Made by a program: the position numbers and the translations under genes
Shown here: positions 3,261-13,883 of the stretch, in pieces
Position numbering within the stretch: position 1 is the stretch's first letter
Layout: every line of letters begins with the position of its first letter
Origin: Myxococcales bacterium
GTDB taxonomy: Bacteria > Myxococcota > Bradymonadia > UBA7976 > UBA1532
NCBI GenBank assembly: GCA_020430675.1
Contig: JAGQJJ010000031.1
Span: forward strand, 1 to 14,473
Direction of reading: 5' to 3'
DNA: 14,473 bases
Notes under the pieces: model-generated
The model's database searches: none
Told to the model about the DNA's origin: nothing
The model's input: the letters and a program-made list of their open reading frames with translations, nothing else

Positions 3261-3914
3261 ATGTTCGATCGACTGCTCGGCCGCGACAAACCAAGAGAGC
3301 ACGCCGAATTCGAAGAAGTGGCCATGCCGCAGGCCGACGCCCTCTACGGCGCCGCCCTGCGCATGACCCGCGACCCCACCCGCGCGGAAGATCTCGTCCA
3401 GGAGACCCTGCTTCGCGCCTACCGGTTCTGGCACAAGTTTGAACCGGGCACGAACATCAAGGCCTGGCTGTTCCGCATCCAGACCAACATCTTCATCAAC
3501 CGCTATCGCAAACGGCAGACCGAGCAGCAGGTTTTCGACGACCGCCAGGTCGACGACATCTTGCAGCGGTACGCCGCCGAAGAGCGGTCCTACCTCCCGC
3601 CCGAGACGCGGGATGAGTTCCTCAAGCACCTCGTCGGCGACGAGGTCATGCGCGCCCTCGATGAACTGCCCTTCGAGTTCCGCATGACCGTGCTGCTCGC
3701 TGACATGCACGACCTCTCGTACAAAGAGATCGCCGATGTGCTCGACTGCCCGGTCGGCACGGTGATGAGCCGCCTGCACCGCGCGCGCAAGCTGCTGCAG
3801 GCGAAGCTGCTCTCGTACGCGGTCGATCGCGGGGTGATCGCGCCGCCCGAGGGGGTCACCGAGGACAATGTGGCCGACCTCGACCTCTTCCGGCGGCGAC
3901 GAAAGGCAGGCTGA
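3261..3914 (+). CDS. ECF-family RNA polymerase sigma factor (RpoE/SigR-like)
   Basis: This 217-residue sigma factor directs RNA polymerase to stress or envelope promoters. Region 2 spans about 25-90: [20 protein letters not shown] binds core polymerase, and [18 protein letters not shown] recognises the -10. A linker of about 40 residues follows, then region 4 (about 128-185) with the helix-turn-helix [20 protein letters not shown] that binds the -35. The segment [14 protein letters not shown] is strongly reminiscent of SigR/SigH-type ECF factors (ECF12), which pair with zinc anti-sigma factors. GGGGGA (3251-3256) is the ribosome site for ATG 3261. The next gene, 8 nt downstream, is the anti-sigma factor, so the two are co-transcribed and the sigma is probably held inactive by it. 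The targets are not evident from the window. Confidence 0.93.
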
Positions 3915-3922
3915 GCGCACCT

Positions 3923-4690
3923 ATGAGTCGCATCGACTGTGACGATTTTCGGACCTTTATCGACCCGTATCTCGACGGTGAGTTCGATCCGGCCGAGCGG
4001 GCCACGTTCGACGCCCACCTGACCATCTGCGGCGAGTGCCGGCGCTATTTCGAGCAGCGCGCCTGGATGCAGAAGGCGCTCAAACCGGCGCTCAAGCGCC
4101 CGTGTGCGATGCCGATGGCAGCGCGCGATCGGGTCTGCCGGGCGCTGCGCGTCGCCGAACGCCCCGCGCGCATCCGGCGGGCGGCCAAACGAATGGCCCC
4201 GCTCTCAACGCTGGCCGCGGTCGGCGCGATCTTCCTGTTTGTCACCCCGCTGACGGGTTTCAAGCCGGTGGTCGATGAGGCCGTGGCCCAGCATATGCAG
4301 CCCTGGCCGGTTGAGATGCCGACCAATGAGGTGACCGAAGTCACCCACTGGTTCCAGGACAAGGTGCCGTTCTCGGTGGCCGCCCCGCGGTTTGTTGACC
4401 GGCGCGTCACCCTGCTCGGCGCGCGCCTCAGCCGCGTGGGCCGCAATACCGGCGACCGCAGCCGGCCCGCGGCCTACCTGATGTACCAGGTGGGCGGGCA
4501 CAAGATGACGGTGCTGGTCTTTGACGGCGCCGATCTGGGGCTGACTGAGCAAGTGGCGCAGAAGGCGCCCGAAGTGCACGAGCAGGCCGACCTGCGGGTC
4601 GCGCTCTTCCAGCACGGCGCGCTGGCCTACGCGGTCACGTCCGATCTGCCCGCCGACGAGATGATCGCCCTGCTGCGCCCCACCTTCTAA
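3923..4690 (+). CDS. Membrane-bound zinc-binding anti-sigma factor
   Basis: A 255-residue partner of the preceding sigma factor, starting 8 nt after its stop with a weak ribosome site, so translation is probably coupled. The N-terminal domain (1-50) is a ZAS/zf-HC2 fold with Cys6, His32, Cys36 and Cys39 (HLTICGEC). That ligand spacing (26, 30 and 33 residues from the first Cys) is the same as recalled for the redox-sensing RsrA (Cys11, His37, Cys41, Cys44). Further Cys are at 61 and 72. Unlike RsrA, which is short and soluble, this protein has one membrane helix (about 93-112, LSTLAAVGAIFLFVTPL) and a periplasmic domain of about 140 residues ending DEMIALLRPTF. It should bind and sequester the sigma factor until an envelope or redox signal releases it. 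The signal cannot be read from sequence. Confidence 0.9.
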   Translation: MSRIDCDDFRTFIDPYLDGEFDPAERATFDAHLTICGECRRYFEQRAWMQKALKPALKRPCAMPMAARDRVCRALRVAERPARIRRAAKRMAPLSTLAAVGAIFLFVTPLTGFKPVVDEAVAQHMQPWPVEMPTNEVTEVTHWFQDKVPFSVAAPRFVDRRVTLLGARLSRVGRNTGDRSRPAAYLMYQVGGHKMTVLVFDGADLGLTEQVAQKAPEVHEQADLRVALFQHGALAYAVTSDLPADEMIALLRPTF

Positions 4691-4739: not shown

Positions 4740-6119
4740 TCAGCCCAGCGCCGCCGCCCGCGCGTCGGCGACCATGCGCTCGGCCGCCAACGGATCGCGC
4801 CACGCCGCCTGAATGTCGGGCGCGAGCTGGTCAATGGGGTCAAAGTACAGGAACTGCTTCCCTGGCTTGACCGACGGCGCCGTATAGACCGAGATGCCCG
4901 TCCGCCGGTCGTAGTACTCATAGCTGTGCGCGCTGCGTTTGCCGCCACCGCCGGGCGCGTCGACCACAAACTTCGGCGTGTTGAAACCCGCCGTGGTGCC
5001 GCGCACCCACTTCTCCACATCAACCGCCGTCTGCACCGTGGTGCGCATGTCTTCGGCGCCCTGCACCATGTCATGCACGTACACGTAATACGGGTGCACG
5101 TTGATATGGCCCAGGCGCTTGACCAGCAGCCCCATCGAGGCCGGCGTATCGTTGACGCCGCGAAGCAGCACCGTCTGATTGCGCACCGTCAGCCCCTCGG
5201 CGAACAGCCGATGCGCCGCGCGCTGCGAGATCTCGGTCACCTCATTCGGATGGTTGAAGTGCGTGTGCAACGCCACCTCTTTGCCGCGCGCCCGACCGAA
5301 CCGGTGCACCTCGATCAGCGCCCGGAACCAGTCCTCATCGGTCAGGATCTTCTGCGGCATGACCGCCATGCCTTTGCTGGCGAAGCGGATGCGGCGAATA
5401 TTGTCCATCGACAAGAGCCGCGTGCCGATCTCGCGAATCCAGTCGACGCGCAGGTTGTAGGCGTCACCGCCGCTGATGACGATGTCCTCCAGCTCGGGCC
5501 GCGAGGCGATATAGGCAAACGCCGGCTCCCACCGCTCCTTCTTCGGCTTGAGCTGCACCTTCGACACCGTGTCGGTATCGAGCCCGACGGCGTACGAGCG
5601 CGTGCAGAAGCGGCAATAGACCGGGCAGGTGTCGATGACCAGGAACAGCGCCTTGTCGACGTACCGATGCGTCAACCCCGGCGTCGGCGCGTCGGCCTGC
5701 TCGGCCAGCGAGTCGAGGCCCAGCTTCGGGTGGTCGGGCAGAAAGCGCGAGGCCAGCGGGATGAACTGGATGCGCAGCGGGTCATTCTCGGGATCGGACC
5801 AGTCGATCAGGCTCAGCAGATAGGGGCTGACGCGCAGCGCCATCGGCGCCTTGTGAAAACCCGCCTCGGCGTCGGCGATGAAACCCGCCGGCGCCAGCCC
5901 GGCCAGCGCGGCCAGCAGCTTGTCGGGCCTTGTGATGGTGTGCTTCGACTGCCAGCGGTGGTCGAGGAACGTCGCCTCATCCACATCGGCATACGCCGGA
6001 ATGCGGCGCCAGAAATCGCCGCCGAGCAGGTTCTTGTGCAGCAGGGTGGCCGGATCAACCGGCGGCTTCAGCGCGGCGGGCACGTCGATGACGTCGAGGC
6101 CTTCAGTCTGTGCGTTCAT
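4740..6119 (-). CDS. kamA: KamA-family radical SAM lysine 2,3-aminomutase
   Basis: This is a PLP-, SAM- and iron-sulfur-dependent enzyme that moves the alpha-amino group of L-lysine to C3, giving beta-lysine. The start is set at ATG 6119 (459 residues) because GGAG sits 6 nt before it; an ATG four codons upstream lacks a site. Cys165, Cys169 and Cys172 (CPVYCRFC) bind the 4Fe-4S cluster. Lys394 in APGGGGK is the expected PLP lysine. Asp350 (YVHDMVQGAE) and Asp387 (VVDAPGGGG) match, at the same 37-residue distance, the two Asp that hold the lysine side chain in the clostridial enzyme; glutamate 2,3-aminomutases differ at both. The long form with full C-terminus argues against an EpmB-type EF-P modifier. 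No beta-lysine acetyltransferase lies in the window, so the fate of the product is unknown. Confidence 0.9.
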   Translation of the reverse strand: MNAQTEGLDVIDVPAALKPPVDPATLLHKNLLGGDFWRRIPAYADVDEATFLDHRWQSKHTITRPDKLLAALAGLAPAGFIADAEAGFHKAPMALRVSPYLLSLIDWSDPENDPLRIQFIPLASRFLPDHPKLGLDSLAEQADAPTPGLTHRYVDKALFLVIDTCPVYCRFCTRSYAVGLDTDTVSKVQLKPKKERWEPAFAYIASRPELEDIVISGGDAYNLRVDWIREIGTRLLSMDNIRRIRFASKGMAVMPQKILTDEDWFRALIEVHRFGRARGKEVALHTHFNHPNEVTEISQRAAHRLFAEGLTVRNQTVLLRGVNDTPASMGLLVKRLGHINVHPYYVYVHDMVQGAEDMRTTVQTAVDVEKWVRGTTAGFNTPKFVVDAPGGGGKRSAHSYEYYDRRTGISVYTAPSVKPGKQFLYFDPIDQLAPDIQAAWRDPLAAERMVADARAAALG

Positions 6120-6125
6120 TGGAGG

Positions 6126-6129
6126 CTCC
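6126..6129 (-). promoter_or_regulatory. Ribosome binding site of kamA, decides the start
   Basis: On the minus strand GGAG is followed by six bases (CCTCCA) and ATG 6119. The alternative ATG at 6131 would place this site inside the coding region. Confidence 0.65.
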
Positions 6130-6134
6130 ATCCG

Positions 6135-6402: not shown

Positions 6403-7893
6403 GTGGTTCAAGAAGGCATCTGTCCGTCTTGTGAGAGCCCAGGGCCGGTCGGTGGGCCCTGCGCGCAGCCGGTCTGCGCGCGCCGGGGCTACCATGCCAT
6501 TCCCCCCGCCTACCTGCCCGATGACGTGCGCACCCTCGACCGTGAGATCGGTCAGCGTTGGGGCGACTATCTCGTCGTCCGCCGCCTGGGCGCCGGGGGG
6601 GTTGGCGCGGTCTATCTCGCGTTGCAATTCCCGGTCATGATGGAGACCGCGGTCAAGGTTCTGCCCGCCGAGACCTCGCAGGTCTTGCGCGACCGCTTCC
6701 AGGCCGAAGCCATGGCCCTCGCTCGGTTGCGCCACCCCAATATCGTTCGCCTGCTGCAGTTCGGCGTCGACCGCGAACGGCCGTACATGGTCATGGAGTT
6801 TGTCGAAGGCGGCCGCACGCTGCATGACGCCTGCAGAGAGGGCCTCGATCGCGACGCCGCGCTGTCGATCCTGCTCCAGATCGCCGACGGCCTGGAGGCG
6901 GCCCATCTCGGCGATGTCGTGCACCGCGATATCAAGCCCGCCAACATCATGTTGCAGTCGCTGCCCGGCAACGCCCACTTCGTGCGCATCGTCGACTTCG
7001 GTCTGGCCAAGTTCACCGACGACGGGCACAGCACGCAGCTGCTCGCGGGCACGCCGGTCTACATGGCGCCCGAGCAGATCGCACGCCGCCATATCGGACC
7101 CTGGACGGACTGGTATGCGTTGGGGGTCATCACGTTCGAGCTCTTCACCGGCCGACGACCCTTCAGGGCCGGCACGCCGCACGCGCTCTTGCTGGCCAAG
7201 TCCGATCCAAGCCATGACCCGACCGAGATGGTGGTCGATCTGGATCTGCCCGAGGCGATGTTGCAGTTCTTCCATCGTGCCCTGGCGCATGATCCAGTGA
7301 AGCGCATCCAGACGGCCGAACAATTTCGCACCGAGCTGCGCGCGGCGCTCGCCGCAAGCGCCCCGGCGACCTCAAGCAGCGGCGGCGTGTTGGCGCCGAC
7401 CTTGGCCCTTCGAGAACCGACGCAGACTTCGGCCGAGATGGCGGGTGAGTCGGCGTCGCTCGATGCTCGCCCGCCCCGGCGCGGCCCGCGCCTCACCGGG
7501 GCAGCCGCGGGCCTGGTCTTGGCAGGCGCCGCGCTGGGAGGCCTGTACGCCTGGCTGGGTCAGCCCGATGCCGAACCGGCTCGCCACGCGGCGAGCGCAG
7601 CCGAGCCGCCTGCCGGAGAGGTGCTGACGATCAGCGAAGTCGTCCGCCTGGACGCCGCAGCGCCGGTCGGCATGAGCGTTGACGCTGCGCTCGTTGAAGC
7701 GTCGCCGGACGCCGCGCCGCCGCCGGTGGCGCCCGACGCCGGTCGGGTGGACGCCGCCCCGAAGGCCGCCCGCCCTGTCGCGCCCCGGCACTCCGCACGA
7801 CGTCGGGCGCCCGCGCCAAGCTCCGTGACCGCCCCGCCAGCGGCGCCCCCTTCGCCCCGCAAACCCGCGGCGCTCAAGATGGAAACCTGGTAG
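6403..7893 (+). CDS. Transmembrane Ser/Thr protein kinase with N-terminal zinc ribbon
   Basis: A 496-residue Hanks-type kinase. Residues 5-34 hold four Cys (7, 10, 20, 25; C-x2-C-x9-C-x4-C) followed by RRGYHAIP, probably a zinc ribbon. The kinase domain runs from about 55 to 320: glycine loop LGAGGVG (62-68), Lys85, Glu102, HRDIKPAN (174-181), DFG (198-200), APE (222-224). All catalytic residues are present. A membrane helix follows at about 366-384 (GLVLAGAALGGLYAWLG). The outer tail of about 110 residues is rich in Ala, Pro, Asp and Arg with no fold visible. It should phosphorylate cytoplasmic targets under control of an extracytoplasmic cue. It is first in a four-gene cluster, 6 nt before the TPR/PEGA-like gene, and is paralogous to the kinase at 12189. 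Confidence 0.93.
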   Translation: MVQEGICPSCESPGPVGGPCAQPVCARRGYHAIPPAYLPDDVRTLDREIGQRWGDYLVVRRLGAGGVGAVYLALQFPVMMETAVKVLPAETSQVLRDRFQAEAMALARLRHPNIVRLLQFGVDRERPYMVMEFVEGGRTLHDACREGLDRDAALSILLQIADGLEAAHLGDVVHRDIKPANIMLQSLPGNAHFVRIVDFGLAKFTDDGHSTQLLAGTPVYMAPEQIARRHIGPWTDWYALGVITFELFTGRRPFRAGTPHALLLAKSDPSHDPTEMVVDLDLPEAMLQFFHRALAHDPVKRIQTAEQFRTELRAALAASAPATSSSGGVLAPTLALREPTQTSAEMAGESASLDARPPRRGPRLTGAAAGLVLAGAALGGLYAWLGQPDAEPARHAASAAEPPAGEVLTISEVVRLDAAAPVGMSVDAALVEASPDAAPPPVAPDAGRVDAAPKAARPVAPRHSARRRAPAPSSVTAPPAAPPSPRKPAALKMETW

Positions 7894-7899
7894 GCCGTG

Positions 7900-8868
7900 A
7901 TGTTGACCGCCTTGTCGCTGGTCTTGGTCCTGTTGGCCCCGCCGCTCGATCTGCCCACCGTGCAGCGGCATGTCGACCGCGCCAGCGCCTTCGTCGAAGC
8001 CGGCGATTGGCCACGCGCTTGCCTTGAACTGGAGATCGTCGCGCCCTTCTTCGCCGACAACGGTGACGACCCGCGGTATCGGTGGAACGTGGCGCGATGC
8101 CGCGAAGAGACCGGCAAGCCGGAGAAGGCGGTCGCCGAATTCGAGAAGGTGCTCACCCTGACAAAGGACGCGAAGGTGCAGGCCAACGCGCGCGATCACC
8201 TTGAGAACCTGCGCGCGCATCGACTGGGCGTCCTGGTCGTCGACTGCAACGTGCCCGCCGCGCAGGTGCGTTTTGCCGAGACCAGCGAGGCCGAGGGTTT
8301 CCGCGCCTGCCCGGCGGAATGGCGCGATCTGGCGCTGGGGCATCGGGCGCTGGTCGGCCAGTCGGTGCGGGGGGTCGAGGTGCACGAGACAGCCACGGTG
8401 CGGGCCGGTCAGACGACCACCGTGTCACTGGTCTTTCCCGCCTTGCTGAGCGTGCGCAGCCCGGTGCCCGCGGTGGTGCTTGTCGACGATCGGCGCGCCG
8501 GCAGCGTGCGGCCGGACGAACCGCTGGCGTTGGACCACCTGCCCCCGGGCATCCACCGGGTGCAGGTCTCGCCCACCACCGGCGCGGCGCCCTGGGAGCG
8601 AGAGATCGTGCTCGATGCCGGCGCGCACCTGGTCGTCGACGCTCAGCTCACGGCTGACGCACCGGTGGTCGTCGGGCCAAGCGATCCCTTCCTGGCGATG
8701 CCCGCGCTGGCAGATCCGCCGCCCGCGGTTCAGTCGGAGCGCGATCTGACGTGGCTCTGGGTCTCGTTGGGTGCCGCGGCGGCGATCACCGCGGGGTTGG
8801 TCACCTGGCAGGTGCTCGACGATGATGGCGGGTCGTCGGCCGGCAGGCCGCGGATCGATGTGCAGTGA
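7900..8868 (+). CDS. Membrane protein with TPR-like and PEGA-like regions
   Basis: This is a 322-residue envelope protein. ATG 7900 directly follows a GTG at 7897; either could start it, 3-6 nt after the kinase stop. The N-terminus (MLTALSLVLVLLAPPLDLP) is a signal peptide or anchor. Residues about 20-100 form alpha-helical repeats (DRASAFVEAGDWPRACLELE and EKAVAEFEKVLTLTKDAKVQ), resembling tetratricopeptide repeats. Two beta-rich segments follow (about 105-175 and 180-250), the second with VVLVDDRRAGSVRPDEPLAL and LPPGIHRVQVS, typical of PEGA surface-layer-type domains. A C-terminal helix (LWVSLGAAAAITAGLVTWQV) gives a membrane anchor. Similar proteins commonly accompany kinases in Myxococcota. 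Its stop overlaps the next start (GTGA), so it is probably made in step with the Cys-rich lipoprotein and may be its periplasmic partner. Confidence 0.8.
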   Translation: MLTALSLVLVLLAPPLDLPTVQRHVDRASAFVEAGDWPRACLELEIVAPFFADNGDDPRYRWNVARCREETGKPEKAVAEFEKVLTLTKDAKVQANARDHLENLRAHRLGVLVVDCNVPAAQVRFAETSEAEGFRACPAEWRDLALGHRALVGQSVRGVEVHETATVRAGQTTTVSLVFPALLSVRSPVPAVVLVDDRRAGSVRPDEPLALDHLPPGIHRVQVSPTTGAAPWEREIVLDAGAHLVVDAQLTADAPVVVGPSDPFLAMPALADPPPAVQSERDLTWLWVSLGAAAAITAGLVTWQVLDDDGGSSAGRPRIDVQ

Positions 8869-11800
8869 AGCCGCGGGCGCTCTTTGGTTCGCTGTGGCTC
8901 AGCGCGCTCGCGGTCGCTTGCGTCGAGCCCCTCACGGATGCGCCGCAGTTGATCATCGGGGTCACGCCGTGCATCGGCCCGCAGGCCGAAGGCGACGCCG
9001 GTGCGGGTGGCACCTGCCGCGCCCGGCTGGTCGCCGAGCGCGGTGATCGCGAGGTCGGCGCCTGCCTGGTGATGGCGCCGGAGGGCGCCGAGGTGTTGCG
9101 CATCCCGATGCGTTGGCTCGGCGACGACCTCGTGCCCGCCGACGGACCCGACACGGCATTTCCCACGGGCGTGCGCAGCCGCATCGCGCTGTTTTTCCTG
9201 ACCAGCGAGACCAATGGCAGCTGCGAGGGCCTGACGCCCGACACCGCCTGCGCCGGCTCGCCGGCCTGCGCGCTGCGGCTTGGACCCATCGAGGAGCGGC
9301 CGGCGACCAGCGGCACGACGTCCTTTGACTTCCGCGGACCGAACGGGCGCTGCGTGGTCGAGTCCGGCGAGAGCGCGGCGGCCGAGCGCGTGCTCTCCGA
9401 AGAGGTCTGCGATGGCACCGACAACGACTGTGACGGCGTCGCCGATGAAGCGAAGCCGGGCATGTGCGAAGAGGGCCGCGGCATCTGCCGGCAGCAGGGC
9501 ACCGAGTTCGTCTGTCAGCACGGCCGGTATGTCTGCAATGTCGACCTCGCCTCGCCCGATACGCCGGTGCCCTGTGATGGCATCGACCAGGACTGCGACG
9601 GCGACTCGGACGAGGGCCAGGACTGCGACGCCTGCCAGGCCGATGACGAGTGCAACACACCCGAGGCGCCGTACTGCGTGGAGAGCCGCTGCCGCGCCTG
9701 CCGGCCCGCCGACGGCGCCGGGTGCATGCCGCCGACGCCGTTCTGCAACCGCGAGGTGTGGATGTGCGGCGGGTGCCGCAACGACGCCGACTGCCCCGAT
9801 GCGTACTGCGCGCAGGTCGTCTGCTCGGCCTGCGACCCCGCGCGAGCCGCCGCGACCTGCCCCGACGCTGCGCGGGCCATCTGCGACGCCGAGGACCGCG
9901 CCTGCCGCCCATGCGGCCCGGGCGATTGCGGTGACGACGTCTGCTTCCAGGGCCGCTGCGTCGCCTGCAACCCCAACACCGGCGAGGGCTGCGCCGAGCC
10001 GACGCCGTTCTGCAACGCGGCCGACTTCACCTGCCGCGGCTGCGCGGTCGACGGCGAGTGCAGCCTGCGCGATCTGGCGACGCCGGTCTGCGTCAACGGC
10101 GCCTGCCAGGTCTGCCGGGTGGGCAACAACGCCGGCTGCGCCGACGCGGCGCGACCGGTCTGCGATCCCGAGACGCTGACCTGCGCGGTCTGCCAGGACG
10201 ACGCCGAGTGCGGGCCGGGACTCAGCTGCACGGGTGGGCGCTGCACGGGCTGCGATCCGGCGGGCAACCGCGGCTGCGAGAACCCCTCGGCGCCCATCTG
10301 CGATGCGGCTGATCGGACTTGCCGATCCTGCCTCGACTCGCTTGAGTGCACCCTCCCCGGCCGCGGCCAGTGCGTGGACGGCCGCTGCGTCGAGTGCGAC
10401 GTGGCCACCCACGAAGGCTGCGTCGAGGCCAGCCAGCGGCCGATCTGCGAAGCGGGCACCTGCCGACCCTGCGCCAACAACCCGCAATGCGAGTTGCGCC
10501 CGGGTGAAGGCGACATCTGCGCCGATGGCATCTGTCAGATCTGCGATGGCGTGCACCACGCCGGCTGCGAAGATCCGGCGGCGCCGATCTGCGAGGGCGG
10601 CGCTCGATGCCGGCCCTGCGCGGGCGATGGCGAGTGCGCGTCGCGCCCCGGTGTTCGCGGACAATGCGTCGCGGGGCAGTGCGCTGCGTGCGACCCCGAA
10701 GACGGCGCCGGCTGCGACGCCGCAGCGCCGATCTGCGACCGCGACTCGCGCGTCTGCCGCGCCTGCGCCGAAGATGCCGAGTGCGGCGGCCGGCAATGCG
10801 TCGGCGGGCGCTGCGACGCGTGCGGTCCGGGCGATGGCGCCGGCTGCGGCGGCGCGGCGCCCATCTGCGACCCCGTCCTCAACGCAGGCACACCCAGTTG
10901 CCGTGCTTGTGGTGATGATGGCGAATGCGGGGCCGGCCGGCGCTGCTTCAACGGGCCCTGCCTGCAATGCGAACCGGCGACGGGCGAGGGCTGTTCGGGT
11001 GCCACCCCGATCTGTGGGGCCAACGGCACCTGCCGCGCCTGCGTCGACGACCCCGAATGCGCGCTGCGCGGACTGGGCAATGTGTGCGTCGAAGGCACCG
11101 GCCGCTGCGCGGTCTGCGAGTTTGGCAGCAACGACGGCTGCGCCGGCGCGACCCCCGTCTGCGAGGCCAATCAGTGCCGCGGCTGCCGCGCCGCCGCCGA
11201 GTGCGGCGAGGGGCAGAGCTGCCAGGGCGGGCAATGCCTCGGCTGCGTGGCGGGGACCAACTCGGGCTGCGTCAACCCGACGCCGTTCTGCGACGCGGTC
11301 AACCCGATGTGTCGGGTCTGCCTGAACGACGGCGAATGCCTCGTCGCTGGCGCGCGGCGTTGCGTGGCTGGCGAGTGCCATGAGTGCAACCCGGAGCAGC
11401 CCAACTCGTGCGCCGCGCCTGACCGGCCCATTTGTGACGGGACGGGAACCTGCCAGGCCTGCGCCGACGATGAGGAATGCCGGCTTCGCGGCGGCGCGAC
11501 GGTGCAATGCGTCGGCGGGCGGTGCGGGGTGTGCGATCCCGTTGGCAATGTGGGCTGCGGGAACCCCCAGTTCCCCGTCTGCGACGCGGTTGATCTGGTC
11601 TGCCGCGGGTGTGAGAGCGCCAACGAGTGCACGGTCGGGGAGCTGTGCCTCAACGCGCGCTGCGCCGAGTGCGACCCGGCGGCCAACGCCTGCCCGGCCG
11701 AGACGCCGATCTGTGATCCCTTCATCGGCGAGTGTCGCATCTGCAACAACGACGACGAGTGCCGGGGCCGGCAGTGCGTCGATGGCCGGTGCCGCACCTG

Positions 11801-12128
11801 CGACCCGGCCGATGACGCCGGCTGCGTGGCCTCGTCGAGTATGCCGGTCTGCGACGCGAACTTCGTCTGTCGCGGCTGCCGCCAAGATAGTGAGTGTCGC
11901 CATCCGGAAGTCGGCGGGCAGTGCATCGGCGGCGGTAATGGCGCGTGCCGCGTCTGCGATCTCAATAGCCAGAACCATAACCCCTACGACGGCTGCCCGG
12001 GTGATAGGCCGGTCTGCATCAACTTGGGGGCCGCTTGCGCCATTCGCTGCAATCGGAACAACGACTGTCAAGCGGGCGAGCGGTGCCTCAATAATGGTCG
12101 CGGGACCGACGCCTGCATCCCGCAATGA
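8865..12128 (+). CDS. Giant cysteine-rich repeat lipoprotein with MopE-type metal-binding motifs
   Basis: This is a 1087-residue exported protein starting at GTG 8865, overlapping the previous stop by 4 nt. The N-terminus (MKPRALFGSLWLSALAVAC) ends in a plausible lipobox. Residues about 20-175 form a domain with few Cys that I cannot name. Two MopE-type motifs follow: CDGTDNDCDGVADE (from Cys182) and CDGIDQDCDGDSDE (from Cys237), Asp-rich and likely cation binding. From Cys257 to the end there are 17 full eight-Cys repeats and a final four-Cys half unit, 140 Cys in the array. The pattern is roughly C-x5-C-x(4-9)-C-x(4-7)-C-x2-C-x(7-13)-C-x(6-8)-C-x(4-9)-C, often with GAGC and APICD. I infer a lipid-anchored, disulfide-locked rod. 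It could be structural, adhesive or a sensor. It lies between two paralogous kinases. Confidence 0.88.
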   Translation: MKPRALFGSLWLSALAVACVEPLTDAPQLIIGVTPCIGPQAEGDAGAGGTCRARLVAERGDREVGACLVMAPEGAEVLRIPMRWLGDDLVPADGPDTAFPTGVRSRIALFFLTSETNGSCEGLTPDTACAGSPACALRLGPIEERPATSGTTSFDFRGPNGRCVVESGESAAAERVLSEEVCDGTDNDCDGVADEAKPGMCEEGRGICRQQGTEFVCQHGRYVCNVDLASPDTPVPCDGIDQDCDGDSDEGQDCDACQADDECNTPEAPYCVESRCRACRPADGAGCMPPTPFCNREVWMCGGCRNDADCPDAYCAQVVCSACDPARAAATCPDAARAICDAEDRACRPCGPGDCGDDVCFQGRCVACNPNTGEGCAEPTPFCNAADFTCRGCAVDGECSLRDLATPVCVNGACQVCRVGNNAGCADAARPVCDPETLTCAVCQDDAECGPGLSCTGGRCTGCDPAGNRGCENPSAPICDAADRTCRSCLDSLECTLPGRGQCVDGRCVECDVATHEGCVEASQRPICEAGTCRPCANNPQCELRPGEGDICADGICQICDGVHHAGCEDPAAPICEGGARCRPCAGDGECASRPGVRGQCVAGQCAACDPEDGAGCDAAAPICDRDSRVCRACAEDAECGGRQCVGGRCDACGPGDGAGCGGAAPICDPVLNAGTPSCRACGDDGECGAGRRCFNGPCLQCEPATGEGCSGATPICGANGTCRACVDDPECALRGLGNVCVEGTGRCAVCEFGSNDGCAGATPVCEANQCRGCRAAAECGEGQSCQGGQCLGCVAGTNSGCVNPTPFCDAVNPMCRVCLNDGECLVAGARRCVAGECHECNPEQPNSCAAPDRPICDGTGTCQACADDEECRLRGGATVQCVGGRCGVCDPVGNVGCGNPQFPVCDAVDLVCRGCESANECTVGELCLNARCAECDPAANACPAETPICDPFIGECRICNNDDECRGRQCVDGRCRTCDPADDAGCVASSSMPVCDANFVCRGCRQDSECRHPEVGGQCIGGGNGACRVCDLNSQNHNPYDGCPGDRPVCINLGAACAIRCNRNNDCQAGERCLNNGRGTDACIPQ
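9633..12125 (+). repeat. Tandem array of about 17.5 eight-cysteine modules
   Basis: Units of about 43-55 residues repeat in frame without interruption. Each begins with an acidic C-x5-C (such as CQDDAEC, CADDEEC or CNNDDEC; unit 3 has x4) and ends with C-R-x before the next unit. Every one of the 17 full units keeps all eight Cys, while the residues between vary freely. The units have therefore diverged under selection for the disulfide frame rather than arisen by very recent duplication. Confidence 0.9.
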
Positions 12129-12188
12129 GCGGCCGTTGGCACGACATTGCGTGGCTGCGGGTGACCCGATAGCCTGAGCGACGACGCC

Positions 12189-13883
12189 TTGGTCAAGGGC
12201 TGGCAGTTGCCGCTGCGCTCCAATGGAATCTGCCCCGTCTGCGGCACCGAAGCTGAGGTGGGCACCCCGTGTCCGCGCGATCGGTGCCGGCGGCGCGGCT
12301 ATCACGCCATCCCCGCGGAGTACGCCGCCGAGGGCGAAGAGGCGCTTGATGGCCTGATCGGGCAATGCTGGAACGGCTACCTCTTGGTGCGCCATCTGGG
12401 CGAGGGCGGCGTGGGCGCCATCTATCTCGCGCTGCACGTGCCCGAGCTGTGGCGCGCCGCGCTCAAGGTGCTCAAGGCCGGCGCCGCGCCGATGCTGGTC
12501 GAGCGCTTTCATCAAGAGGCGGCGGCGCTCGCTCGGCTCGCCCACCCCAATATCGTGCGGCTGCTCGACTTCGGTGAGTTCGGCGACCGGCCCTACCTGG
12601 TGATGGAGTACGTGGAAGGCGCCTGGACGCTTCAGGACGCGCTCGCCGCCAAGCCGTTGCCGCGCCCGCAGGCGCTGCTCTTGCTGCGTCAGCTCATCGG
12701 CGCGCTGGACGAGGCCCATCGGTGGGGCGTCATTCACCGCGATGTCAGCCCCAACAACATCATGTTGCAGCCGGTGCAGGGCGCGCCGTTTTCGGTGCGG
12801 CTGGTCGACTTCGGGCTGGTCAAGTTCGCCGATGACGGTCGCCAGAGCACCACGCTGCTCGCCGGCACGCCCGCCTATATGGCGCCCGAGCAGCTTCATC
12901 GCCGGCAGATCGGCCCGTGGACCGACTGGTTCGCGGTCGGCGCCATCGCCTGCGAGGTGCTGTTGCAGCGCCACCCGTATGGCCTGCTCGAAGCCGACGA
13001 CATCCTGCGCCTGAAGCTGCGCGACGACTACGACCCGACCGAGTCGATCGCCGGCGAGGGCTGGCCCGAGCCGGTCATGGCCTTCTTCCGCCAGGCGCTG
13101 GCGCATGATCCGATTCGGCGGTTTCACGACGCGCACGCCTTCAACGCCGCCTTCGAGCAGATGGTCGCCGCGCTGCCTTCGCCCGCGGCGGTGCGGGGCG
13201 TGGTTGAACCCACCGTCAAGCTCGACGCGCTGAGCGATGAGGCGATCGCCGCGCATCTGGGCACCGACGTGGCCTCGTTGCGCGCCGCCGAGAAGCCGAT
13301 GCCGGCGCAACTGGCGAGTCGATCGAGCCTGCGCATCGACGCTTCGACCCCGGTCTCGGAGCTGCGGGTCACCCGGCATATCGAGTCCGAAGCGTCAGGC
13401 GGCAACCGCAACACCGCGCCGCTGCCGAACACGCCGGCCACACCGGCCACACCGGTCGCGCCGGTCGCGCCGGCCTATCTGACGCCCGAGGGCGCGCCCG
13501 CCACCGCGCCGCCCCGCGGTCCCGCGGCGACGCATACCATCCTGGTCGGCTATGGCAAGGTGGGCGGCCCGCCCGCAAAACCGCCCCCGAGCCGCCGCGG
13601 GGTGCTGATCGGCCTGGGCGTGGCCGGCCTGCTCACCTTTGGCGCGGCGGTCTGGTTCCTGCGCGCGCCGGGCCATGACGCCGAGGCGGAGTACGCCCTG
13701 GCGCTCCGGCACGCCCACGCGGGCAAGGTCGAAGACGCGCACGCCGCGCTGGCCCGGGCGCTTGAAGCGACGTCGGATCCCGAGGCGATGAAAGCCCGCG
13801 CCCGCGACGAGGCCGCGTTCAAGGCGCTCAAGTCGCCGTCGATCAATGAGCTGATCGACCGCGTGGTCTTCAACGTCAGGTAG
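12189..13883 (+). CDS. Second zinc-ribbon transmembrane Ser/Thr protein kinase
   Basis: This is a 564-residue paralogue of the kinase at 6403. The start is uncertain: no ATG or GTG is available in frame, so TTG 12189 is used; TTG 12207, preceded by AAGGG, is equally possible. Cys15, 18, 28 and 33 form the same C-x2-C-x9-C-x4-C ribbon, followed by RRGYHAIP. The kinase domain spans about 65-325: GEGGVG (71-76), Lys93, Glu110, HRDVSPNN (183-190), DFG (207-209), APE (232-234). The usual Lys of HRDxKxxN is Ser187, a variant seen in other myxobacterial kinases, so activity is still likely. A linker of about 145 residues, rich in Pro, Ala and Thr, leads to a membrane helix (about 470-490, VLIGLGVAGLLTFGAAVWFL). 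The outer tail of about 70 residues is helical and TPR-like (YALALRHAHAGKVEDAHAAL). The gene begins 60 nt after the Cys-rich lipoprotein. Confidence 0.9.
   Translation: MVKGWQLPLRSNGICPVCGTEAEVGTPCPRDRCRRRGYHAIPAEYAAEGEEALDGLIGQCWNGYLLVRHLGEGGVGAIYLALHVPELWRAALKVLKAGAAPMLVERFHQEAAALARLAHPNIVRLLDFGEFGDRPYLVMEYVEGAWTLQDALAAKPLPRPQALLLLRQLIGALDEAHRWGVIHRDVSPNNIMLQPVQGAPFSVRLVDFGLVKFADDGRQSTTLLAGTPAYMAPEQLHRRQIGPWTDWFAVGAIACEVLLQRHPYGLLEADDILRLKLRDDYDPTESIAGEGWPEPVMAFFRQALAHDPIRRFHDAHAFNAAFEQMVAALPSPAAVRGVVEPTVKLDALSDEAIAAHLGTDVASLRAAEKPMPAQLASRSSLRIDASTPVSELRVTRHIESEASGGNRNTAPLPNTPATPATPVAPVAPAYLTPEGAPATAPPRGPAATHTILVGYGKVGGPPAKPPPSRRGVLIGLGVAGLLTFGAAVWFLRAPGHDAEAEYALALRHAHAGKVEDAHAALARALEATSDPEAMKARARDEAAFKALKSPSINELIDRVVFNVR
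13436..13471 (+). repeat. Four 9-bp tandem repeats in the kinase linker
   Basis: Two copies of GGCCACACC are followed by two copies of GGTCGCGCC, encoding the TPATPATPVAPVAP linker. The period is a multiple of three, so slippage would change linker length only. Confidence 0.75.

What the first reader, a model, noticed from the sequence alone, without database searches (positions are those of the whole stretch)
6403..13883. Four-gene envelope signalling module: two paralogous zinc-ribbon kinases around a TPR/PEGA-like protein and a giant Cys-rich lipoprotein
Seen: four co-oriented genes with a 6-nt gap, a 4-nt GTGA overlap and a 60-nt gap; both outer genes are transmembrane Ser/Thr kinases of the same unusual design. 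Known: TPR/PEGA-type membrane proteins and MopE-motif lipoproteins occur in Myxococcota. Inference: the exported rod and the adaptor sense or build something at the cell surface and the two kinases relay it. I do not recognise this set as a described system.
Basis: partly seen in the sequence, partly recalled or inferred. Interest (0 to 1): 0.75.

Follow-up and report, generated by a model that had tools for sequence, protein, structure and literature searches.

The report
Kinase, adaptor and surface-rod lipoprotein module
In an uncultured relative of the myxobacteria, a membrane protein kinase sits in one gene row with an exported TPR/PEGA partner and a very large disulfide-rich lipoprotein; similar rows recur in related genomes, which suggests a modular way of sensing the cell surface that has not been tested.

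Summary
In detail: four co-oriented genes (6403-13883), two kinases with N-terminal Cys4 ribbons (48% identical), a TPR+PEGA+TM protein with a signal-like start, and a 1087-aa lipoprotein-like protein with 157 Cys. The exact set of four was seen nowhere else. What recurs is a chain of links. (1) Kinase directly upstream of adaptor: 28 of 41 non-seed loci. (2) Adaptor directly followed by a Cys-rich, signal-bearing ORF: 10 of 41, against 7 of 346 control genes. (3) The lipoprotein's N-domain family (16 of 16 genomes of the order) has a TPR/PEGA gene beside it at 19 of 36 loci, against 10 of 129. Its direct link to kinases is not significant (p = 0.10). Kinase-adaptor-lipoprotein triads occur in three other genomes, more loosely in a fourth. 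Kinase 2 may be an add-on: its nearest relatives stand alone. Best reading: the TPR/PEGA protein is a separately encoded outer half of the kinase, and the Cys-rich lipoprotein is the surface element it reads, in logic like PknG-GlnX-GlnH. That the adaptor instead exports or assembles the lipoprotein is not excluded. Mechanism is inferred.

The parts
6403..7893 (+). Kinase 1: N-terminal Cys4 ribbon, Ser/Thr kinase domain (HRDIKPAN, DFG), TM-like segment, about 110-aa low-complexity tail
6421..6477 (+). Cys4 ribbon of kinase 1 (C7, C10, C20, C25)
   Evidence: C10, C20, C25 invariant and C7 nearly so in 10 aligned sequences
7501..7557 (+). TM-like segment of kinase 1 (aa 367-385)
   Evidence: hydropathy only
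7900..8868 (+). Adaptor: signal-like N-terminus, TPR helices, two beta domains (second is PEGA-like), disordered linker, C-terminal helix taken as TM; C117 and C138 invariant in the four aligned sequences
7951..8220 (+). TPR helices of the adaptor (aa 19-108 counted from GTG 7897)
   Evidence: block pLDDT mostly above 85
8224..8640 (+). Two beta domains of the adaptor (aa 110-178 and 182-248)
   Evidence: 6hif_Y, 77 columns, rmsd 1.9
8865..12128 (+). Giant Cys-rich putative lipoprotein, 1087 aa, 157 Cys
8919..9392 (+). N-domain of the lipoprotein from the lipobox Cys19; Cys 36, 51, 67, 120, 129, 135, 163 invariant in 10 aligned sequences
9402..9602 (+). Two MopE-like Asp/Cys motifs (EVCDGTDNDCDG, CDGIDQDCDG)
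   Evidence: by eye; no Pfam match
9624..12050 (+). Tandem Cys-rich repeats; 8 non-overlapping units of 44-50 aa matched by a pattern of mine
   Evidence: modelled as small beta-hairpin knots at low confidence
12189..13883 (+). Kinase 2: Cys4 ribbon, kinase domain with HRDVSPNN (lysine replaced by serine), TM-like segment, short tail with a weak TPR match
12231..12287 (+). Cys4 ribbon of kinase 2 (C15, C18, C28, C33)

Best explanation
Kinase 1, the adaptor and the Cys-rich lipoprotein form one envelope-to-cytoplasm signalling module. Kinase 1 lies in the inner membrane with its ribbon and catalytic domain in the cytoplasm. The exported adaptor, anchored by its C-terminal helix, supplies in trans the TPR/PEGA extracytoplasmic part that some other kinases carry as a fused tail. 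The Cys-rich lipoprotein is a lipid-anchored, disulfide-knit rod in the outer envelope whose state (presence, ligand binding, oxidation or load) is read by the adaptor and passed to the kinase. Shown: gene order, domains, recurrence of the two pairwise links and of triads. Inferred: export, lipidation, physical contact, direction of signalling. Kinase 2 is probably a later neighbour, possibly a regulatory partner with altered catalysis.
For: Kinase directly upstream of adaptor in 28 of 41 non-seed loci, the top-ranked adaptor hits of a search of 12 genomes, lying in 9 of them. Kinase matches number 115 to 147 per genome in the four counted (lower bounds for two of them), so a kinase as chance upstream neighbour should be a few per cent (my estimate). 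Cys-rich signal-bearing ORF directly after the adaptor in 10 of 41 against 7 of 346 control genes. Lipoprotein N-domain beside a TPR/PEGA gene in 19 of 36 against 10 of 129. Triads: L122 (G001) and L223 (G020) with the same N-domain; L022 and L127 (G004) with other Cys-rich proteins; L230 (G004) noticed later, outside the counted set. Looser, in G002: L120 (a 171-aa protein between) and L119 (adaptor only as a fragment in another frame that overlaps the kinase frame). Adaptor-lipoprotein-kinase in L132. Adaptors of L127, L022, L122, L132 align with the window's at 28-33% identity over 248-351 columns, L223 at 29% over 131. A ribbon kinase with a fused C-terminal PEGA domain exists (P0011, 29.1 bits against cut-off 20.8).
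Against: Lipoprotein-kinase linkage by itself is not above control (6 of 36 against 9 of 129, p = 0.10); 30 of 36 lipoprotein loci show no kinase within 1.6 kb, though several contigs are short. Kinases of L119, L120, L122, L223, L022, L132 fall in a different clade from kinase 1 (100/100); that of L127 does not. The lipoproteins P0024 (L113) and P0026 (L115), among the closest to the window's, sit by TPR proteins that share only the C-terminal stretch with the window's adaptor. 31 of 41 adaptor loci lack a Cys-rich ORF directly after. A direct scan for fused adaptors among 90 kinase frames found one, and only its TPR part (L011, iE 1.7e-4). Foldseek found no match at E <= 0.001 for the lipoprotein (pTM 0.25).
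Confidence: 0.42

Rival explanations
1. The adaptor is a periplasmic chaperone or assembly factor that brings the large Cys-rich lipoprotein through the envelope; the kinase adjusts this export and is optional.
For: The adaptor-lipoprotein link is stronger than any lipoprotein-kinase link: 19 of 36 against 6 of 36. A kinase-free PEGA-lipoprotein-TPR row recurs (L117, L124, L125, L211, L213, L217). Weak similarity to the secretion lipoprotein PorW/SprE (E 0.0023, far below cut-off) and structural matches to type III secretion chaperones, common to TPR folds.
Against: 31 of 41 counted adaptors have no Cys-rich ORF directly after them while 28 of 41 have the kinase, so the kinase-adaptor pair does not need this cargo; the membrane-anchored architecture suits a receptor complex as well as a chaperone.
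Confidence: 0.28
2. Chance neighbourhood of hugely expanded families (kinases, TPR proteins, Cys-rich secreted proteins) in a large genome, without shared function.
For: All three families are abundant: 147 kinase matches in G001 and in G002, adaptor HMM matches in 12 of 12 genomes. The exact four-gene row was seen nowhere else. Lipoprotein-kinase linkage alone is at control level.
Against: Adaptor-Cys-rich ORF and lipoprotein-TPR/PEGA links exceed controls with odds ratios of 15.6 and 13.3; the kinase-adaptor link is 28 of 41; the 6-nt and overlapping junctions fit co-translation.
Confidence: 0.1
3. Two units lie side by side: kinase 1-adaptor-lipoprotein as a module, and kinase 2 as an independent solitary kinase that happens to follow. 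Compatible with the best explanation for the first three genes.
For: 60-nt gap; kinase 2 relatives in G001 and G002 have no adaptor or lipoprotein match around them; kinase 2 carries its own weak TPR-like tail (E 0.013, below cut-off) and an altered catalytic loop.
Against: A second kinase near the adaptor recurs elsewhere: kinase-adaptor-kinase in L151, adaptor-lipoprotein-kinase in L132, two kinases around lipoprotein and adaptor in L123. No terminator-like site was found in the 60-nt gap, which is weak evidence. On re-reading these loci I lowered this confidence from 0.55 to 0.45.
Confidence: 0.45

Closest known systems
PknG-GlnX-GlnH of actinobacteria (PMC8546545; abstract and passages seen)
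   Same: Three genes in one operon: a kinase with a TPR domain and, in most actinobacteria, a metal-binding rubredoxin-like domain beside the catalytic core; a transmembrane protein; and a putative lipoprotein sensor.
   Different: In PknG the TPR is part of the kinase polypeptide, which meets a membrane partner; here the kinase itself has a TM-like segment and the TPR protein is separate with a signal-like start. The lipoprotein here is a Cys-rich rod, not an amino-acid-binding protein. No PknG-specific Pfam domain was matched.
Ser/Thr kinases with C-terminal TPR domains in Planctomycetota and myxobacteria (PMC11032199; abstract and passages seen)
   Same: Kinase inside and TPR predicted in the periplasm (Planctomycetota); C-terminal TPR in 26% of Sorangium cellulosum kinases.
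   Different: There the TPR is on the same polypeptide; here on the next gene, with PEGA-like domains and a membrane helix of its own.
TraA of Myxococcus xanthus (PMC3325183; passages seen)
   Same: Tandem Cys-rich region proposed there as a rigid stalk on the cell surface.
   Different: TraA has PA14 and MYXO-CTERM; the window protein has a lipobox and matches no NCBIfam model at E <= 0.1.
MopE-like putative metal-binding motif proteins (Pfam PF11617)
   Same: Short Asp/Cys motifs; a similar N-domain heads P0033, which has 15 such stretches.
   Different: The window protein has two motifs by eye and does not match in Pfam; most of it is another repeat.

Membership tests
Ser/Thr (Hanks-type) kinase | Pkinase domain above the curated cut-off with VAIK lysine, HRD and DFG motifs | tested here: met
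   167.9 and 137.6 bits against 31.7; HRD and DFG in both; AVK/ALK lysine read; kinase 2 lacks the HRDxK lysine
PknB/Stk1 PASTA kinase | NCBIfam equivalog cut-off (450 bits) | tested here: not met
   205.8 and 165.6 bits
PknG | Rubredoxin-like and PknG TPR domains by Pfam (domain names recalled) | tested here: not met
   not among Pfam matches at E <= 0.1 for either kinase
TPR/PEGA protein | TPR helices followed by a PEGA-type fold | tested here: met
   model; PDB TPR matches; 6hif_Y as PEGA-like is recalled; window protein itself below Pfam cut-offs, homologue L022 above the PEGA cut-off
TPR/PEGA protein, exported and membrane-anchored | Signal peptide and TM | tested here: inconclusive
   signal-like start by eye; helix 284-296 in the model at pLDDT under 50; no predictor run
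TraA-type Cys-rich repeat or MYXO-CTERM protein | NCBIfam models TIGR04201 and the MYXO-CTERM tag (the second model recalled) | tested here: not met
   no NCBIfam match for P0003 at E <= 0.1
MopE-like protein (PF11617) | Pfam match above cut-off | tested here: not met
   0 families for the window protein at E <= 0.1
Bacterial lipoprotein | Lipobox and lipidation of the +1 Cys | not testable with these tools
   LAVAC present and Cys19 invariant in 13 aligned sequences, window included; lipidation needs experiment
Kinase-adaptor-lipoprotein triad | Same order and strand with a homologous adaptor in other genomes | tested here: met
   L022, L122, L127, L223
Four-gene K-A-L-K set | Recurrence of all four in order | tested here: not met
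   not seen in the listings for 45 adaptor loci and 36 lipoprotein loci; nearest are L132 (A-L-K), L151 (K-A-K), L123 (two kinases, other order)

The most novel reading that the evidence does not exclude
A modular two-polypeptide receptor-kinase toolkit of Myxococcota: ribbon kinases obtain their outer half from an exchangeable TPR/PEGA protein, and a share of these adaptors is matched with its own giant Cys-rich or TSP3-type surface protein, reshuffled within and between genomes; the window holds one with an added, catalytically altered second kinase.
Probability: 0.28. Interest if true: 0.75.

Novelty: new variant of a known kind. Interest (0 to 1): 0.5.

Why it matters
Myxobacteria carry up to hundreds of Ser/Thr kinases, few with a known input. 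A recurring gene partner outside the membrane, and in a minority a specific surface protein next to it, gives such kinases a testable input and shows a way to pair receptors and kinases without fusing them.

Tried and rejected
Own genome: not held, so no count in the window's own organism. The adaptor homologue search found only itself (7995 candidates scored); homologues came from gene neighbourhoods and HMMs instead. A strong database relative of kinase 1 (P0006, 64% over the N-terminal 80 aa) could not be placed: the listed matches in 57 genomes of the class have 46-53% identity, so its neighbours are unknown. Of the 80 loci I used L001-L022; L023-L080 match more weakly (E 2e-7 to 1e-4, many only around the P-loop) and were not examined. 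Fused adaptors as proof of partnership: one partial case in 90 kinase frames plus P0011, so weak support. Recent tandem duplication of the two kinases: not supported, each pairs with other rows. The 1549-aa antisense ORF 8730-13379: taken as a shadow of the + strand reading (codon-position GC). Promoter and terminator scan: 1 promoter-like site against 0.3 and 3 terminator-like against 2.7 in shuffles, no use. Fold of the lipoprotein: no reliable match. Literature: the listings showed no description of this row (searches returned no paper); the library lacks most subscription journals. Perez et al. 2008 on the myxobacterial kinome was seen only as a reference.

Biases: the 12 genomes were chosen because they hold a kinase hit; in several of them only 150 first-look candidates were scored, so counts are lower bounds. 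A3 was built from four kinase-adjacent adaptors (excluded from the counts). The AD HMM was built from 32 kinase-adjacent adaptors, of which L122 is also among the 36 lipoprotein loci, and many of its matches there cover only the TPR or the PEGA part; adjacency was measured between stop-to-stop frames, which is generous. Control genes lie in the same loci, which raises their chance of a kinase neighbour. The Cys-rich filter (4% Cys, 200 aa, lipobox-like, hydrophobic start) was set by me; the allowed overlap was widened from 60 to 120 nt, which added L132. The adaptor hit in L130 has one stop inside. The 90 kinase frames include duplicates (80 different domain sequences).
Full report
What is there. 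The four genes lie as described. Kinase 1 (6403-7893) and kinase 2 (12189-13883) share an N-terminal Cys4 ribbon followed by RRGYHAIP, a Pkinase domain and a TM-like segment. Between them are a protein with a signal-like start (7900-8868) and a 1087-aa protein with 157 Cys (8865-12128). The start of kinase 1 at 6403 is supported by codon-position GC and by a database prediction. The start of kinase 2 could be 12189 or 12207.

The adaptor. Pfam sees TPR and PEGA only below cut-off, but the AlphaFold2 model (mean pLDDT 77.5, four sequences) shows TPR helices 19-108, two beta domains 110-178 and 182-248, a disordered linker and a low-confidence helix at 284-296. Solved TPR proteins match by profile (best E 6.7e-6). 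Foldseek's top rows by E-value are poor superpositions; good local matches are TPR proteins and the factor 6hif_Y (77 columns, rmsd 1.9). The homologue in L022 passes the PEGA cut-off (31.2 against 20.8 bits). Cys 117 and 138 are invariant in the four aligned sequences.

The Cys-rich protein. It has a real family: 27 non-self proteins, 12 of which I aligned with it. An N-domain with seven invariant Cys after the lipobox Cys precedes MopE-like motifs and repeats. In the order-level set the N-domain occurs in 16 of 16 genomes, 36 places at E <= 1e-11, with 150 candidates scored per genome. Eight repeat units of 44-50 aa match a simple pattern in the window protein. Its model is of low confidence (mean pLDDT 65.2, pTM 0.25) and has no fold match at E <= 0.001.

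Link 1, kinase to adaptor. The 41 non-seed adaptor loci are the top-ranked hits after three seeds; 12 genomes were searched and the 44 hits lie in 9. With the window they make 45 loci. A kinase frame ends less than 600 nt upstream on the same strand in 32 of 45, or 28 of 41 without the four seeds; 3 of the 41 have under 100 nt of upstream sequence. The misses are L128, L132, L141, L142, L144, L152, L153, L155, L159, L160, L161, L163, L165. The pair is thus a common unit in these genomes, not special to the window.

Link 2, adaptor to Cys-rich protein. Directly downstream of the adaptor, a signal-bearing Cys-rich ORF follows in 10 of 41 loci (L122, L127, L129, L130, L132, L135, L149, L150, L158, L162) against 7 of 346 other genes of the same loci, Fisher p = 7e-7. 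These third genes are of several kinds: the pattern of the window's 44-50-aa repeat is found in L132, and outside this count in L022, L119, L120, L223, L113 and L115, but not in L122, L127, L129, L130, L135, L149, L150, L158 and L162. In L006 and L007 proteins with thrombospondin type 3 repeats lie beside the pair.

Link 3, lipoprotein family to TPR/PEGA genes. At 19 of 36 N-domain loci a gene matching the broad adaptor HMM lies directly beside it on the same strand, against 10 of 129 control genes, p = 1e-8. In many of these no kinase is near and the match covers only the TPR or the PEGA part: a row PEGA-lipoprotein-TPR recurs in L117, L124, L125, L211, L213 and L217. The lipoproteins P0024 in L113 and P0026 in L115 follow TPR proteins that resemble the window's adaptor only around the C-terminus. 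A kinase within 1.6 kb is found at 6 of 36 against 9 of 129 controls, p = 0.10. The lipoprotein is therefore tied to the kinase mainly through the adaptor.

Triads and the fourth gene. Kinase-adaptor-lipoprotein in the window's order, with a homologous adaptor, is seen in L022 and L127 (G004), L122 (G001) and L223 (G020). L230 (G004) looks like a further one, noticed outside the counted set. In G002, L120 has a 171-aa protein in between, and in L119 the adaptor is only a fragment in a frame that overlaps the kinase frame. L132 (G001) has adaptor-lipoprotein-kinase and a further kinase about 3 kb upstream on the other strand; L151 has kinase-adaptor-kinase, both with Cys4 ribbons; L123 has two kinases around a lipoprotein and an adaptor, one divergent and one about 1.3 kb downstream. 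No K-A-L-K row was seen. In the kinase tree (80 rows) kinase 1 pairs with P0006 (100/92) and kinase 2 with the kinases of L001 and L002 (100/98), around which no adaptor or lipoprotein match lies. Kinase 2 is the only one of the 88 kinase frames with a readable HRD motif that has serine in place of the catalytic-loop lysine; 2 of 90 had no readable motif.

How it may work. I read the adaptor as the extracytoplasmic half of kinase 1 given by a separate gene, and the Cys-rich lipoprotein as the surface element that it reads. This is inference from links 1 and 2, from domains, and from the existence of kinases with fused TPR (PMC11032199, abstract and passages) and one ribbon kinase with fused PEGA (P0011). 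The design parallels PknG-GlnX-GlnH, where a lipoprotein is proposed to sense, a membrane protein to relay and a TPR-bearing kinase to answer (PMC8546545, abstract and passages), without shown homology beyond the kinase domain. The Cys-rich rod recalls the proposed stalk of TraA (PMC3325183, passages), again without family membership. The rival that the adaptor is an export or assembly factor for the lipoprotein is encouraged by link 3 and cannot be excluded.

Verdict. Observation confirmed; interpretation partly supported. A modular kinase-adaptor-Cys-rich protein arrangement recurs in uncultured Myxococcota; the exact set of four does not. I saw no description of it in the listings, within an open-licence library only.

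Noticed in passing
window 12189-13883 (catalytic loop HRDVSPNN): Kinase 2 is the only one of 88 kinase frames with a readable HRD motif that has lost the catalytic-loop lysine; it may be impaired or act as a regulatory partner.
   Followed up: partly
window 3261-3914 and 3923-4690: ECF-type sigma factor followed by a zinc-finger anti-sigma-like protein.
   Followed up: no
window 4740-6131, - strand: KamA-family radical SAM protein (225.8 bits against 199.2) divergently placed before kinase 1.
   Followed up: no
window 8730-13379, - strand: A 1549-aa antisense open frame that shadows the Cys-rich gene and kinase 2; codon-position GC speaks against coding.
   Followed up: yes
L117, L124, L125, L211, L213, L217: A recurring kinase-free row PEGA protein - N-domain lipoprotein - TPR protein, in L117 and L213 with ABC-transporter-like genes nearby.
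   Followed up: partly
L151 3-4477: Kinase-adaptor-kinase on one strand, both kinases with Cys4 ribbons, the second cut by the contig end.
   Followed up: partly
L144, L155, L160: Adaptor-like gene with a kinase about 3.5 kb downstream at almost constant spacing in three genomes (3506, 3530, 3518 nt).
   Followed up: no
L127-L166, adaptor C-termini: 32 of 43 picked adaptor genes end in F or W, often after a beta-like stretch by eye; the window's adaptor does not.
   Followed up: no
L006 9674-18142 and L007 3-6966: Kinase-adaptor pairs beside thrombospondin type 3 repeat proteins; the C-terminal parts of these two adaptors look like outer-membrane beta strands by eye.
   Followed up: partly
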